A stretch of DNA of 64,000 nucleotides from Marchantia polymorpha subsp. ruderalis. Lineage: Eukaryota; Streptophyta; Marchantiopsida; Marchantiales; Marchantiaceae. Below are positions 55,213 through 62,250 of this stretch, piece after piece; position 1 is the first letter of the stretch; every line of letters begins with the position of its first letter. Location of the stretch: contig AP031354.1 of the NCBI GenBank assembly GCA_037833965.1, forward strand, positions 33,024,001 through 33,088,000, given 5' to 3'. Under the pieces are notes generated by a model. The model worked only from the letters and a program-made list of their open reading frames with translations. It searched no databases and was not told where the DNA came from. The position numbers and the translations under genes are program-made.

Positions 55213-55542
55213 TGTAATTATCTTTTGTTAGTTGAAACTAAAGTAAAAGTTACCTAATATGAGATTGTAATTACCTTAGAATGCGCTAGTCATAGTTGTC
55301 ACGTTATCAACTCATGTGCTTGGTAGGTAAAAAATAAGTGTTAGTTGAGAATAATATGTAAGCAATATGTGTGCTTGTTAGTTTAGGATTAAAAGTACTA
55401 GTTAGTGTATTTGTTGAAAGTGACAAATCTTAGACTTGATGACAATATGCTTATTGTCATGTCATCAATCCACAAGGAATGAAAAGCATGATGGGAAAGA
55501 GATATTATCTCATTGTATTTGTTGGTATGATCTATAAGGAAG

Positions 55543-55962
55543 TGTAACCATCTTTAGTTAGTTAGAACTAAAGTAGAGGTTACTCTGAATATTGATGTAG
55601 ATACTTTAGTGTGCACTAGTCATAGCTGCCACGTCAGCGATCCGCGCACTTGGTAGGTACAGAGTGGATGTGTTAGTTGACAGTGCCACGTCAGCAATCC
55701 GTGTGCTTGTAGGTAAGGATTGAGTGTGTTAGTTAGTGTGTTAGTTGGGTGCGCCACGTCAGCGATCCGTGTGCTTGTTAGGGTTATCCGCCACGTCATC
55801 CATCCACTAGGAGTGGTATGGATGGTGGGGATTAGATCTTATCACCTTGTACTTGTTGGTGAGAGCTATATAAGGGAGAGGAGAACCATTGTTGGTATCT
55901 CTCATCTTCAGAGTTTACGTTTCTATCTTCGAGTGAAATTCTCTCTAAACCCTAGTGTTACA
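55543..55962 (+). repeat. 5' LTR of the chromovirus
   Basis: Bounded by TG...CA. It contains four copies of GCCACGTCA in the U3 part and a TATA box TATATAA at 55867-55873. Transcription should start shortly after the TATA box. Confidence 0.96.
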
Positions 55963-55963
55963 A

Positions 55964-55975
55964 TGGTATCAGAGC
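55964..55975 (+). promoter_or_regulatory. Primer binding site, initiator Met-tRNA
   Basis: TGGTATCAGAGC, one base after the 5' LTR. This is the standard plant LTR-element site complementary to the 3' end of initiator methionine tRNA, and it primes minus-strand DNA synthesis. Confidence 0.93.
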
Positions 55976-56126
55976 GACCTTGCTCTTTCCTTGAGTGTGG
56001 ATTACCCCTCATGGAATAGCAAGTGAGTGATGATGGAGTGTAGTCTTGAGAGTGTATAGAGGTTGGCAGAGGTCATTCATCTGCATGTAGAGAGAGGTGG
56101 AAGGGGGACATTGTGTTTTTGCAGAT

Positions 56127-56559
56127 ATGGACGGGATTGACAGGAATCCAGTACCGCACTGGCCAATTCCTAACCTATTCGATATTCACCTTCGTTGCAT
56201 GGAGAAACATCATTTTCGGATGTACCTTGTGGCTTGTTGGGGTGCAGATTTTATGACTAGAGTGATGGAGTCAAGAGTGCCACTGATTCTTCCAATAGTT
56301 ACTTATGGAGAGACTTGGGATTGTACTATATACATTCTATACTAATTGTTTCATGGATTTGAACCGCGAACCACCTGTCCTGGTTCGATTCAGCACTTAT
56401 GTAGAGATTAGAACAGTATATAGACAGAAGAGGATATGGAGAGATTTTCTTGTGAGGAATTATGGAGAGGAGTACTATAGAGCTGTGATAGAGTCACCTG
56501 CACCTTTTGTGACTCCTTTGTTGAGAGGTCACATAATGATTATACTCACTTTGTATTAG
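56127..56559 (+). other. Two short leader ORFs of the chromovirus
   Basis: 56127-56345 (from MDGIDRNPVPHW) and 56305-56559 (from MERLGIVLYTF) lie between the primer site and gag, overlap by about 41 nt and are in different frames. Their products share a faint pattern: F..Y/H..E followed by D/W-F, then VMESRVPLILPI in one and VIESPAPFVTPL in the other. They may be upstream ORFs that control gag translation, or remains of a duplicated N-terminal domain. Function is unknown. Confidence 0.45.
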
Positions 56560-56576
56560 AGGGAGTGTGAAAAAGC

Positions 56577-57740
56577 ATGGGAACATCAATTGATATGGGT
56601 GAGGTTCTCAATGCAATCATGGCGGAGATGAAGGAGTTGAGAAAAGCGATAGTAGATGGGCATACCAAGCAGCAAGCCATGGAAGATAAAATCTTTGCAT
56701 TAGAGAGTGAGAAAGTAGATAGAGAGAGAGTTGGAGAGATGGAAGTTGAACCTCAAGTTCAAGCTTCCCAAGTTCAGCCAGAACCAACTCCTATTGATGC
56801 AGCAGAGGCAAATAGGAGACGTCTTCAAGAGATTGAAGATCAAGCAAATCTTTTGCTTCGAATGGGAAAATCCTGTAAGGTGGAAGCTTACAAAGGGAGT
56901 AGAGCAATGGGAGTGTTAGAGGGATGGATTATGAGGATGAATATTCATTTATCCCATTTTCATGTTTCTGATTATATTGCAGGAATGTTCATGAGATCTT
57001 ATCTTACGGATAAGGCTCTCACATGGTACACAACATGGGAGAGAATGCTTTCAGAACGAGGTGCTACCATTTCGTGGAGTGGAATGCAGGAAGGACTTCT
57101 GCAAAATTTTCAAGCGGTGGATTCTCTTCAAACTGCAAGAATGAAGTTGTGGGATCTGAAGCAGAAAGGAGGTATTCATGAGTACATTGAAGAATTTCGT
57201 GATCTTCAAGTATCTATCATGGATATGAGTGGAGCTGAAGCCTTGGACGTGTTCAAACGAGGCTTGAAAGATCGAATTCGAAAGGAGGTGATGGTAAGCA
57301 ATCCATCTACTGTGAATGAAGCAATCGCAATTGCTCAACGAATTTCAGGTGCTTTTGGTGTCACACACGGTGAGCCAGTGAGCAATTTTAGAGATCCATC
57401 TGGTCCAACACCGATGAAGTTGGGAAACCTTCGACGTAGAGAAGGTTTTGCACCAACAAGAGGACCACCACCAAGATTTGGAGGTGAGATTAGGCGACCA
57501 GGAGTTCCAAATTTGCAAGAAGGTTATGCAAATAATGGAATGGTTCGAGGAGGAGCTGGAGTTCGTGACAATCGCCAATGCTATGCATGTGGACGAATGG
57601 GTCACATAGCCAAGTTTTGTCGAGTTCGGCCGACACAACAAGGAGGACGGCCCATGCAGCGACGACCGTTCAACAATATGGAGGGGATAGAGTATGAAGA
57701 GGTGGAGGAAGCAGTTTCGGGAAACGAAGATCACCAGTAA
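56577..57740 (+). CDS. gag: Chromovirus Gag, capsid-nucleocapsid
   Basis: 387-residue structural protein that assembles the particle around the element RNA. Residues about 5-50 are helical and charged (coiled-coil-like). Residues about 95-265 form the retrotransposon gag/capsid domain, with [34 protein letters not shown], and [20 protein letters not shown]. Residues 335-348 are a CCHC zinc knuckle ([14 protein letters not shown]). The acidic tail overlaps the start of the pol frame. The start ATG at 56577 is the first in frame with the domain. The stop at 57738-57740 lies just downstream of a candidate slippery site. Confidence 0.95.
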
Positions 57741-60700
57741 TCTTGCCTCGCGGCCTTACTGGTTCTACAAAGCGAAGAAAAGGCGAGGTTGGAAGAAAGC
57801 AATGGTTGGGAGCTCATGGAAGGAGTAAGAAGCAAGCTCAACTCATTGTCACTGATGGTTTCATGGAAGGACACAAGGTGAGAGTTTTAATTGATCCTGG
57901 AGCAACTGAGAATTTTCTATCAAGGAGTGTTGCTATGAAGTTAGGTTTGATGTTGATGAAGGACGTGAGTGAAGAAGTTGAATTGCCAAACGGGCAAACT
58001 GAAGTGATAGAAACACTACCACGGAGTGTAGAATTATCCATAGGTAGATACAAGGAGAGCATTGAATGGAGAGTAATTCGTTTAGCTCGGTATGATGTCA
58101 TCCTTGGAATGCCATGGATGGAACAATATAATCCGAAGGTAGATTGGAGAAGAAAAGTGATTACAAGTAGCGGATGGAAGATCTATGGAGATAGAATTAG
58201 ATCTCAGAATAGGAATTTACCCCTCTTTGTGATGGGTACAGCATCCATTTCTAGAGATGATGTATGTTTCCTTGGACTTATAAGAGATATTGGGTCCACG
58301 GACAAACCTTACATCCCGGAGTCCTTGAACGACATTTTTATGGAGTATAAAGATGTTTTTCCAGATGATCTACCTGCAGGATTACCACCAAAGAGGCGAG
58401 TTGATCACAAGATTGAGGTGATACCTGGAAGTACACCAACTTGCAAAGCTCCATATCGTTTGGCTCCAAACGAATTGGAAGAATGCAAAGCTCAAGTGGA
58501 GGAGATGTTGAGCAAGGGATTCATTCAGCCAAGTGTTTCACCTTATGGAGCTCCAGTACTCTTTGTGAAGAAGAAGGATGGATCCATGAGACTATGTATC
58601 GATTATCGCGGGTTGAATCAGCAAACGGTGAAAAACAAATATCCATTACCTCGTATGGATGATTTGTTTGATCAACTTCAAGGAGCGAAGTACTTCACCA
58701 AGCTAGATTTGAGAAGCGGCTACAATCAAATTCGAATTGCAGATGAAGATGTTCACAAGACAGCTTTTCGTACTAGGTATGGACACTTTGAGTATCTGGT
58801 GATGCCTTTTGGTCTCACTAATGCACCAGCTACATTCATGGGATTGATGAACGATATCTTTCGCCCTTATCTAGATAAATCTGTCATTGTTTTTCTAGAT
58901 GATATATTGGTGTATAGCAAAACTTTGAGTGATCATAGAAGTCATTTACGAGAGGTACTTCAAGTTTTAAGAGACAATCAATTGTATGCCAAAGCTTCAA
59001 AATGTGAATTTGGCAAGTCAGAAGTAGATTACTTGGGTCATAGAGTTACAGCTACAGGAATCCAAGTGATGAGTGAGAAGATAGAGGCCATTCAGAAATG
59101 GATAGCACCTGAGGATCAAACTCAATTGAAGAGTTTTCTAGGGCTCACTGGATTCTATCGTAGATTTGTGAAAGGTTTTGCTCGACTAGCTCAGGCCTTG
59201 ACTTCCATGTTAGGGAAAGGTCAGAAGTGGAGATGGGGAACAGCTCAAGAGTTAGCTTTTCAAGCATTGAAAGATGCTTTGTTACACGCACCTATTCTCA
59301 AGTGGTATGATCCTAACCGTTCTATCAAGTTGGCCACTGACGCATCAGGTACAACAGTAGGTGGCATACTTCAACAAGAATGGGAGGATGGATGGCATCC
59401 AGTTGCTTTCTATTCTCGAAAGTTGGTGGCGGCGGAACAAAATTATCACACGACAGAACGGGAGGAGTTAGCTATCGTGTTGGCAACCAAACATTGGAAG
59501 CATTATCTGGGTGATAAGGAGTTTGTGGTGGAGACTGATCATAAACCCTTGGTTTATTTGGAAACTCAGAAGGATCTGTCCAAACGACAAATTCGATGGG
59601 CAGAGTGGCGTCAACGCTTCAACATGAAGATTGTGTACGTGGAGGGAAAGAAGCAACTTGCAGATGCTCTCACACGCATGCCTTGTTTGAATCATGTTGC
59701 AGAAGTGAAAATTCAGGCGGATTGGTGGAGCAAGATGTCACAAGCCACAAAGGAGGATGAAGAGATCACTCGAGCACTACAAACTGGAAAGGCAGAGAAA
59801 TCTCGAGGTTTGGCGTTTTACAATCAGCGTATATGGATTCCACAAGATCACGATTTGCGCACAATGATTTTGGCAGAAAGTCATGATACAGCCATTGCAG
59901 GTCATGTGGGAGTGGAGAAAACCGTGGAGAGTATACAACGAGTGTACTTTTGGCCCAAAATACGTGAGGATGTGGAGTCTTACGTTCGAAGTTGTGTTGC
60001 TTGTCAACAAAACAAGGCAAGTAATCAAAAACCAGCGGGTTTATTACAACCTCTTCCTATTCCCGAACAGCGGTGGGAACATGTCACCATGGATCTTGTA
60101 TGTGAGTTACCAAGGACTTCGTTAGGACATGATTCAGTGGTGGTTTTTGTGGACAAATTGAGCAAGATGATTCACATCAGGCCAACCACAAAAACAGTAA
60201 CAGCTCCACAACTAGCTCAATTGTATCTAGACGCAGTTTTTGTGAATCATGGCTTAAGCAAAGTGTTAATCACGGATAGAGGTACTCACTTCACTAGTTT
60301 ATTTTGGAAAACTTTGTTTAGTTTTTTCAAAACAAAACTAGCAATGTCAACGGCCTATCACCCTCAAACTGATGGACAAACTGAGAGGGCAAATAGAACC
60401 ATAGAGGATATGCTACGAGCATTCACATTAGAAGAGCAAGAAGAGTGGGACAACCTTTTGCCACTTGTGGAATTTGCATATAACAATTCTGTTAATGCAT
60501 CCACAAAAGTGTCTCCATTTTTTCTTATGTATGGAGCTCATCCGATAACTCCTTCAAGTTTGATGAGACTTCCGAAAGGAGAGGAGTTTTCGACCAAAGT
60601 TGCAGCAGTCAACGAATTCATGGAGCATATTCACCGAGGACTACATCAGGCCAAGGAGAAGTTGGTGATAGCTCAAAATCGGCAAAAGCAGCATGCCGAT

Positions 60701-61171
60701 GCTCATCGTAGAGAAGTGATTTTTGAGGTTGGAGATCATGTTTGGTTATCTACAACGAATTTGTCTCTTGTAGGAACACCAAAGTTAAACCCTAGGTACA
60801 TTGGTCCATTTTTGGTTTTGAAGCGTGTTGGTGAAGTGTCATACAAGTTGGAACTTCCGTCACATATGAAAATACATCCAGTATTTCATGTGTCACGATT
60901 GCGAAAACATGTACCACGACCAAAACAATTCACCAATCAACCAGCACCACCTCCTCTTCCAACCTTGATAGCAGATCATGAGGAGTTTGAGGTAGAAAAG
61001 ATACTCAAGAAACGTATTCGAGGTCATAAATATCCCAAAGTAGAGTATTTGATTCAATGGAAAGGCTATCCATCGTATGAATCAACTTGGGAACCAGCTA
61101 AAAATTTAGCAAATGCACCTTTGATAGTTCAGGAGTTTGAACGTATGTGCAACGAGGACGTTGCATCTTAA
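57698..61171 (+). CDS. pol: Chromovirus Pol: protease, RT, RNase H, integrase, chromodomain
   Basis: The frame opens at 57698, overlaps gag by 43 nt and has no ATG at its start; it is in the -1 frame relative to gag. Numbered from the TTG at 57743 (1142 codons): protease at about 35-140, with active site [10 protein letters not shown] (proline replaces the usual serine or threonine after Asp51); RT at about 240-420, with [28 protein letters not shown] and FLDDILVYS; RNase H at about 515-640, with LATDASG and ETDHKPL; integrase HHCC finger (GHVGVEKT...CVACQQNK), then the DDE core [16 protein letters not shown] and [12 protein letters not shown]-like [10 protein letters not shown]; chromodomain at 1082 to about 1133 ([10 protein letters not shown]...YLIQWKGYP...TWEPAKNL). 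The chromodomain probably steers integration to particular chromatin. No internal stop is present. Confidence 0.95.
57719..57788 (+). promoter_or_regulatory. Candidate programmed -1 ribosomal frameshift signal
   Basis: GGGAAAC (57719-57725) fits X XXY YYZ exactly in the gag phase (TCG GGA AAC) and lies 12 nt before the gag stop. After a 7-nt spacer, ACCAGTAA (57733-57740) can pair perfectly with TTACTGGT (57756-57763). The loop sequence CCTCGC (57746-57751) can pair with GCGAGG (57783-57788), which would make an H-type pseudoknot. Alternatively a small GCC/GGC stem closes the loop. A -1 shift here enters pol. Confidence 0.7.
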
Positions 61172-61182
61172 AAGGAGGGAGG
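61170..61182 (+). promoter_or_regulatory. Polypurine tract
   Basis: AAAAGGAGGGAGG, overlapping the pol stop codon by two bases and two bases before the 3' LTR. It should prime plus-strand DNA synthesis. Confidence 0.92.
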
Positions 61183-61184
61183 TT

Positions 61185-61604
61185 TGTAACCATCTTTAGT
61201 TAGTTAGAACTAAAGTAGAGGTTACTCTGAATATTGATGTAGATACTTTAGTGTGCACTAGTCATAGCTGCCACGTCAGCGATCCGCGCACTTGGTAGGT
61301 ACAGAGTGGATGTGTTAGTTGACAGTGCCACGTCAGCAATCCGTGTGCTTGTAGGTAAGGATTGAGTGTGTTAGTTAGTGTGTTAGTTGGGTGCGCCACG
61401 TCAGCGATCCGTGTGCTTGTTAGGGTTATCCGCCACGTCATCCATCCACTAGGAGTGGTATGGATGGTGGGGATTAGATCTTATCACCTTGTACTTGTTG
61501 GTGAGAGCTATATAAGGGAGAGGAGAACCATTGTTGGTATCTCTCATCTTCAGAGTTTACGTTTCTATCTTCGAGTGAAATTCTCTCTAAACCCTAGTGT
61601 TACA
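61185..61604 (+). repeat. 3' LTR of the chromovirus
   Basis: 420 bp, with no difference from the 5' LTR when I compare them by eye. Its TATA box is at 61509-61515. It can promote transcription into the flanking DNA. Confidence 0.96.
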
Positions 61605-62250
61605 GGAAGAGTAAAATCATTGTAGGTATTATTCATCTTCAAAGTTGTGTTTCATTTTTGATCAAGCTACTCTCTTGATCACTAGTGTTACAAAACTACA
61701 ACAAATGTGATTGTGATTATGTCACATGATTCGATTATCTTGCGATCATTTGGTTTTGTCCACAAAGATGCCATGAGTTATGATTTATGACTTTGAGTCT
61801 CCTTTCCAAAAGAAAATATCTACTTGTGAGAGGATTTTGGTGTTACATGAAAAGTTTAGCACATTCATACTTTAAACATGACGTCTCTAAACATATGAAA
61901 TGGTATGATATGATGTTATTCAACCTTATGACTTCTTAAATCAAATCTAATCATGCTTTGTAGATAAAAATTTCATGAGTCAATGACTCTAAAAGTCCAT
62001 AATATGAAGTTCAAGAATTGTTGAAAGATTGAAGACAATTATCATCTGGTTACGTTATAATCTTTGAACATATGAAAGTATCTAATTTGATACTTATATA
62101 TTTGTGATTTCTTGAATCAAAAATTTGATCATGCTTTGTAAATAAATGAATCGGTGAGTACCAAGGAAGTTCATGAATTTTCAGAGGATGAAGAAAATAT
62201 TTGCAACTCAATCTCAATCATTTTTGTGAGTATGTAAACTACAGATTTAA

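What the first reader, a model, noticed from the sequence alone, without database searches (positions are those of the whole stretch)
57698..57788. Chromovirus pol appears to be expressed by programmed -1 frameshifting
gag and pol overlap by 43 nt with pol in the -1 frame and no ATG at the pol start. In the overlap sits GGGAAAC in the correct gag phase, 7 nt before an 8-bp perfect stem that includes the gag stop codon, with a further 6-bp GC-rich pairing possible from the loop to 57783-57788 (pseudoknot). Many plant chromoviruses use one continuous gag-pol frame, so a full retrovirus-like signal is notable. Seen directly: frames, heptamer, stem. Inference: function.
Basis: partly seen in the sequence, partly recalled or inferred. 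Interest (0 to 1): 0.78.

Follow-up and report, generated by a model that had tools for sequence, protein, structure and literature searches.

The report
Liverwort retrotransposon with ribosomal frameshift signal
A young, abundant jumping gene in a liverwort-like plant genome seems to make its enzymes by having ribosomes slip back one base at a retrovirus-like signal, and the shape of that signal appears to be kept in a related liverwort.

Summary
A 6,062-bp chromovirus (55543-61604; identical 420-bp LTRs) has gag (stop 57738-57740) and pol (open 57698-61171) overlapping by 43 nt, pol in the -1 frame, first pol-frame ATG only at 57863. G GGA AAC (57719-57725) is in gag phase, 7 nt before a perfect 8-bp stem (S1); loop bases 57746-57751 can pair with 57783-57788 (S2). 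It is not a one-copy indel: 0 of 88 sampled junction loci (about 85 places) have an indel in the overlap; 83 of 88 keep the heptamer. Those copies are too alike to show constraint. The useful test is Riccia sorocarpa: two gene models (P0003, P0127) read the whole junction in the third frame, so their residues limit its bases. With P0003, S1+S2 strands differ for certain at 1 of 28 bases, loops and flanks at 30 of 58; after the gag stop, 1 of 20 against 20 of 39. Riccia's slip site is inferred as GNAARAC, not GGGAAAC. Best reading: -1 programmed frameshifting stimulated by a conserved H-type pseudoknot; inferred, not measured. The mechanism is known (PEG10 uses the same heptamer); the land-plant LTR-retrotransposon setting looks new, within limited literature searches.

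The parts
55543..55962 (+). 5' LTR, 420 bp, identical to the 3' LTR; preceded by GGAAG target-site duplication (55538-55542)
55964..55975 (+). primer-binding-site-like TGGTATCAGAGC (match to plant initiator tRNA-Met is recalled)
56571..57740 (+). gag frame, stop to stop (389 codons); capsid domains and CCHC knuckle; ends TAA 57738-57740
57698..61171 (+). pol frame (1157 codons open), -1 relative to gag: protease, RT, RNase H, integrase, chromodomain
57698..57740 (+). gag/pol overlap, 43 nt
57719..57725 (+). slippery heptamer G GGA AAC in gag phase
57726..57732 (+). 7-nt spacer
57733..57740 (+). S1 5' arm ACCAGTAA (contains gag stop)
57746..57751 (+). S2 5' strand CCTCGC, in the S1 loop
57756..57763 (+). 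S1 3' arm TTACTGGT
57783..57788 (+). S2 3' strand GCGAGG; the 19 nt between S1 and S2 form loop 3
61185..61604 (+). 3' LTR, 420 bp, followed by the GGAAG duplication (61605-61609)

Best explanation
A recently active Ty3/gypsy chromovirus of a Marchantia-like liverwort makes Gag by normal translation and Gag-Pol by -1 programmed ribosomal frameshifting. A ribosome with GGA in the P site and AAC in the A site slips one base back to GGG AAA, while an H-type pseudoknot 7 nt downstream (S1 8 bp, S2 6 bp, loops of 5, 4 and 19 nt) holds it. The minority that slip pass the gag stop, which lies inside S1, and read pol. Shown: frames, heptamer, complementary strands, same arrangement in the copies read. 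Inferred: conservation of both stems in Riccia (from protein sequences), and that slippage happens.
For: Frames, heptamer and stem; no pol-frame ATG before 57863; same arrangement in the copies read. Riccia third-frame tails: S1+S2 strands differ for certain at 1 of 28 bases against 30 of 58 (P0003) or 33 of 58 (P0127) in loops and flanks; restricted to bases after the gag stop, 1 of 20 against 20 of 39 (Fisher 0.0003) and 1 of 20 against 22 of 39; 0 of 99 circular shifts of the stem mask do as well. S1 is the only one of 25 registers in which all 8 pairs are possible; the single sure stem change (57758 A to G) can still pair. All 6 S2 pairs are possible too, against 12 of 17 pairs of the competing nested fold. 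Six other Ty3/gypsy contigs with a -1 gag/pol overlap carry GGGAAAC (3) or CCCAAAA (1) by script, or GGAAAAC (2) by eye, near the gag end. G_GGA_AAC is named among the most shift-prone heptamers with mammalian ribosomes (PMC5009743, passage), and PEG10 uses it (passages).
Against: No translation data. Copies in the genome show no lower variation in heptamer or S1 than around them (0.86 and 0.94 distinct variants per site, S2 0.50, against 0.46-0.57). Nested energy models prefer another fold. Riccia evidence is back-translated from gene models of one species, assumes an ungapped alignment, and its heptamer is not canonical; only 3 of 8 S1 pairs and 1 of 6 S2 pairs are forced, the rest depend on codon choice; S2 is possible in six other registers of 25 for P0003, two of which score clearly better than the proposed one. 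The Fisher tests treat neighbouring bases as independent.
Confidence: 0.85

Rival explanations
1. Pol is made separately by re-initiation or internal initiation at the first pol-frame ATG (57863), which still precedes the protease DPGA motif.
For: ATG at 57863 in the pol frame, 123 nt after the gag stop; the protease motif starts 10 codons later.
Against: ATGs in other frames lie between (57802, 57816, 57855); it explains neither the open pol frame upstream to 57698, nor the in-phase heptamer, nor the conserved stem strands.
Confidence: 0.06
2. A spliced RNA joins gag to pol in one frame, as splicing sets the Gag to Pol balance in other plant LTR retrotransposons.
For: Splicing strategies are described for plant elements (PMC12786077 passage; Ogre in PMC6317226 passage).
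Against: A compact 43-nt overlap with no intergenic stretch; splicing does not explain the heptamer or stems. Splice sites were not searched for.
Confidence: 0.04
3. The -1 offset is an old indel fixed in a master copy, heptamer and stem are accidental, and pol is supplied in trans by another element.
For: The scored copies are very alike, so a founder effect could fix anything; the heptamer alone has a 3-12% chance.
Against: Full-length frames stay open in many copies; heptamer plus 8-bp stem in 0 of 20,000 shuffles; stem strands kept in Riccia.
Confidence: 0.04

Closest known systems
PEG10 / sushi-ichi-type Ty3/gypsy -1 frameshift signal
   Same: Same GGGAAAC heptamer near the end of ORF1 and a downstream pseudoknot (5-nt spacer in PEG10) (PMC2800197 passages; PMC10570562 passages)
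   Different: PEG10 is a domesticated mammalian gene; here an LTR element with chromodomain in a plant; spacer 7 nt; kinship of the two signals not tested
SM-Tcn1, two-ORF chromovirus of the lycophyte Selaginella
   Same: Non-seed-plant chromovirus with separate gag (323 aa) and pol (1238 aa) ORFs (PMC2864245 passages)
   Different: The passages read give no frame relation or slip signal; clade membership of the present element not tested
Plant LTR retrotransposons with gag and pol in different frames in the 2003 survey
   Same: Separate gag and pol frames
   [quoted passage not shown] here it is -1
Angiosperm chromoviruses (for example Beta vulgaris families)
   Same: Chromodomain-bearing Ty3/gypsy elements
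   Different: gag and pol in one continuous ORF (PMC3605345 passage); in the RT tree the window and Riccia lie outside the group that holds the angiosperm rows

Membership tests
-1 programmed ribosomal frameshift signal | Overlapping ORFs, downstream ORF in -1 frame | tested here: met
   0 of 84 merged places with an indel in the overlap
-1 programmed ribosomal frameshift signal | In-phase X XXY YYZ heptamer | tested here: met
   GGGAAAC 57719-57725; in Riccia inferred GNAARAC, which cannot be a strict X XXY YYZ
-1 programmed ribosomal frameshift signal | Stable structure a few nt downstream, conserved | tested here: met
   7-nt spacer, S1 and S2 complementary; strands conserved by inference in Riccia; nested folding alone does not predict S1; pseudoknot energy not computed; no Rfam match
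-1 programmed ribosomal frameshift signal | Measured -1 product | not testable with these tools
   no translation data
Chromovirus (Ty3/gypsy with chromodomain) | Gag, then PR-RT-RH-IN order, and C-terminal chromodomain | tested here: met
   PF03732/PF19259, PF08284, PF00078, PF17917, PF17921, PF00385 over their cut-offs; PF00098 (20.2 of 20.8 bits) and PF00665 (29.7 of 32.6) just under
Tcn1 clade of chromoviruses | Groups with Tcn1/Tf1/sushi elements in RT phylogeny | not tested
   no named Tcn1 reference was available; only shows the window with Riccia (100/100), apart from the angiosperm rows
Tcn1 clade of chromoviruses | Chromodomain with aromatic cage (95% of Tcn1, but also 56-59% of Galadriel and Chlamyvir; PMC6317226 passage) | tested here: inconclusive
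   candidate F, W and Y residues seen by eye in the translation; cage positions recalled, not checked by alignment

The most novel reading that the evidence does not exclude
The first retrovirus-like -1 frameshift signal with an evolutionarily conserved pseudoknot in a land-plant LTR retrotransposon, kept in liverwort elements (Marchantia-like and Riccia) and using the slip site of the sushi/PEG10 line, so that it could be an ancestral chromovirus trait lost in the single-ORF plant lineages.
Probability: 0.4. Interest if true: 0.62.

Novelty: new member of a known kind. Interest (0 to 1): 0.5.

Why it matters
Plant LTR retrotransposons mostly use one gag-pol frame, and how they keep Gag in excess is a standing question; splicing is the documented answer in some. 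A -1 signal in an abundant, recently active liverwort family offers a plant system in which the retroviral solution can be tested directly, and a way to ask whether chromoviruses inherited or reinvented it.

Tried and rejected
Copies inside the genome as a test of selection: rejected, too alike. Viral-contig scans: no relatives. A nested-only hairpin as the stimulator: not favoured by energy, so the pseudoknot is needed. Readthrough of the gag stop: cannot reach pol, different frame. Register test for S2 in Riccia: uninformative, other registers fit as well or better. Another Ty3 family on C1 (L074 with L146, 44% identity over 623 aligned residues of protease to RNase H) reads gag, protease and RT in a single frame, with a stop inside, so single-frame elements coexist in this genome; the FGLCNAP-type family was not resolved at its junction.

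Rows dropped: L057, L074 and L079 did not enter the RT tree (stops or too short a match). Of 25 contaminant loci, 13 had a junction with gag supported by Pfam (L054 under the cut-off): 6 with -1 overlap, 7 in one frame (L042, L043, L044, L046, L049, L050, L053; L043 and L044 have identical RT), none +1. L047 and L048 gave no gag domain; L058's upstream ORF is a protease; L052, L055, L056 and L063 are partial or broken and their gag was not tested; L039, L040, L041, L051 and L061 lack the junction. Of 84 merged places, L015 and L016 (4 kb apart) were merged by my margin although they are separate.

Full report
What is there. The window lies in a 241-Mb, 9-contig genome (C5:33024001-33088000). 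The gag hits are few: an unnamed source (P0001, 99%), Marchantia polymorpha (P0002, P0005), Riccia sorocarpa (P0003) and another unnamed one (P0004), so the host is inferred to be a Marchantia-like liverwort. The element spans 55543-61604 with identical 420-bp LTRs, a GGAAG duplication and a TGGTATCAGAGC primer site. Pfam finds capsid domains and a zinc knuckle (just under its cut-off) in gag, and protease, RT, RNase H, integrase and chromodomain in pol.

Observation. gag ends with TAA 57738-57740; pol is open from 57698 in the -1 frame. GGGAAAC 57719-57725 is in gag phase. S1 (57733-57740 with 57756-57763) follows 7 nt later, and S2 (57746-57751 with 57783-57788) makes an H-type pseudoknot possible. 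The first pol-frame ATG is 57863.

Chance. In 20,000 dinucleotide shuffles a canonical in-phase heptamer fell in the overlap in 2.8%, and with a stem of 8 bp or more in none. In the real gag frame 4 of 388 in-phase positions are canonical heptamers, including another GGGAAAC at 57422, so the heptamer alone could be a 12% event; 16 of 889 canonical heptamers in the window have such a stem.

Family. In the junction search the 40 scored matches (of 667 candidates) are listed at 100% identity, rounded, over 501 nt. Of 150 scored pol matches (2,563 candidates) 69 by my count show the full 1157-codon frame without stops; among 114 scored gag matches (1,998 candidates) the 389-codon frame is the commonest. 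I read 88 junction loci: 22 identical to the window over 57690-57800; heptamer kept in 83, S1 arms in 79 and 81, S2 strands in 85 and 83, gag stop in 87, heptamer with S1 and S2 in 68. Merged to 84 places: heptamer 79, S1 70, S2 77, all three 65, and no indel inside the overlap. The sample is not random: best matches plus 40 lower-ranked matches; it includes degraded copies. Per-site variation of heptamer and S1 is not lower than around them, as expected for neutral change after insertion, so these copies show a shared arrangement, not constraint.

Deeper comparison. Riccia gene models P0003, P0126, P0127 and P0128 carry a tail that matches the window's third frame at the junction (TK-I/T-T; in P0003 and P0127 on through W and RG). 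That frame is not known to code for anything in the element, so its residues act as a read-out of bases. In three of four models (not P0127) a CCHC knuckle is possible only in the gag phase, 51 codons upstream; the pol phase has a forced stop 8-13 codons upstream of the site in P0003, P0127 and P0128, not in P0126. So the same gag phase reaches the junction; that Riccia pol continues in the -1 frame is not shown. With P0003, bases that differ for certain: upstream flank 10 of 19, heptamer 1 of 7, spacer 0 of 7, S1 1 of 16, loop 1 4 of 5, S2 0 of 12, loop 2 2 of 4, loop 3 9 of 19, downstream 5 of 11. Stems 1 of 28 against 30 of 58 (Fisher 4e-6); after the gag stop only, 1 of 20 against 20 of 39 (3e-4); first two codon positions after the stop, 1 of 13 against 19 of 26 (1e-4). 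P0127 gives the same picture (1 of 28 against 33 of 58; 1 of 20 against 22 of 39). No circular shift of the stem mask (0 of 99, each model) is as good. The upstream flank may be misaligned, since by eye Riccia P0003 is about two codons longer there, so I rely on the downstream counts. S1 is the only register of 25 in which all 8 pairs are possible, though only 3 of the 8 are forced. S2 is possible in its register with 1 of 6 pairs forced, but also in six others for P0003 (five for P0127), two of them with clearly higher scores; S2 therefore rests on strand conservation, not on the register test. The competing nested fold allows 12 of 17 pairs. The models come from one species and are not independent.

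Slip site in Riccia. Inferred GNAARAC in the four models: with G and A filled in, GGAAAAC, also seen by eye in the overlaps printed for L059 and L060, where my script listed no heptamer, and proposed for several fungal and plant-infecting dsRNA viruses (PMC4881467 passages). It is a relaxed site, so non-conservation of the exact heptamer is a result against the simplest reading.

Other elements. Of 25 contaminant Ty3/gypsy loci in bacterial and archaeal assemblies, 13 had a readable junction with gag supported: 6 with pol in -1 (L045, L057, L062 GGGAAAC; L054 CCCAAAA; L059, L060 GGAAAAC) and 7 in one frame. L045 and L054 carry chromodomains; none was found in the scanned parts of L059, L060 and L062; L057 was not scanned. 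Their hosts are unknown. In the RT tree of 51 rows the window and two Riccia rows form a 100/100 group outside the group that holds the angiosperm rows; the deeper place is open.

Structure. S1 hairpin alone -7.0 kcal/mol, S2 duplex -11.5; the nested minimum for 57726-57790 is -15.9 and leaves S1 out, -14.7 with S1 forced. I did not compute a pseudoknot energy. No Rfam family matches at E up to 1.

Literature. Passages read: plant elements with separate frames in the 2003 survey were only +1 (PMC5009743); most plant groups have one ORF, some two (PMC6317226); SM-Tcn1 has two ORFs (PMC2864245); Selaginella Galahad, Fogey and Diluvium elements one (PMC3350952); PEG10 uses GGGAAAC plus pseudoknot (PMC2800197, PMC10570562). 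[quoted passage not shown] the passage names no plant case. Ten searches (three of them on other points) listed no title about a -1 signal in a plant LTR retrotransposon; I saw at most 20 rows of each and the named passages, subscription journals are mostly absent, and supplementary tables could not be read.

Verdict. A real signal, very probably functional, of a known mechanism in an unusual host.

Noticed in passing
57893-57904 (pol frame): The protease active-site motif reads DPGA ([10 protein letters not shown]) rather than the usual D-S/T-G (recalled); P0009, from an unnamed source, has the same.
   Followed up: partly
G000:C8:10763738-10775882 and C3:30250408-30267912: Copies at regular spacings (three copies 5,822 bp apart; four copies 5,635 bp apart) look like tandem arrays of the element, perhaps from LTR recombination.
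   Followed up: no
57422-57428: A second in-phase GGGAAAC lies inside gag; its -1 frame closes before 57698.
   Followed up: no
L074/L146 (G000:C1:872700-876672): A different Ty3/gypsy element, 44% identical in protease to RNase H, reads gag and pol in one frame, with a stop inside.
   Followed up: partly
L039-L063: Bacterial and archaeal genome assemblies hold Ty3/gypsy retrotransposon contigs, evidently eukaryotic contamination.
   Followed up: partly
P0003, P0126, P0127, P0128 (Riccia sorocarpa gene models): Annotated Riccia proteins hold gag or pol fragments joined to a stretch read in a third frame at the gag-pol junction.
   Followed up: yes
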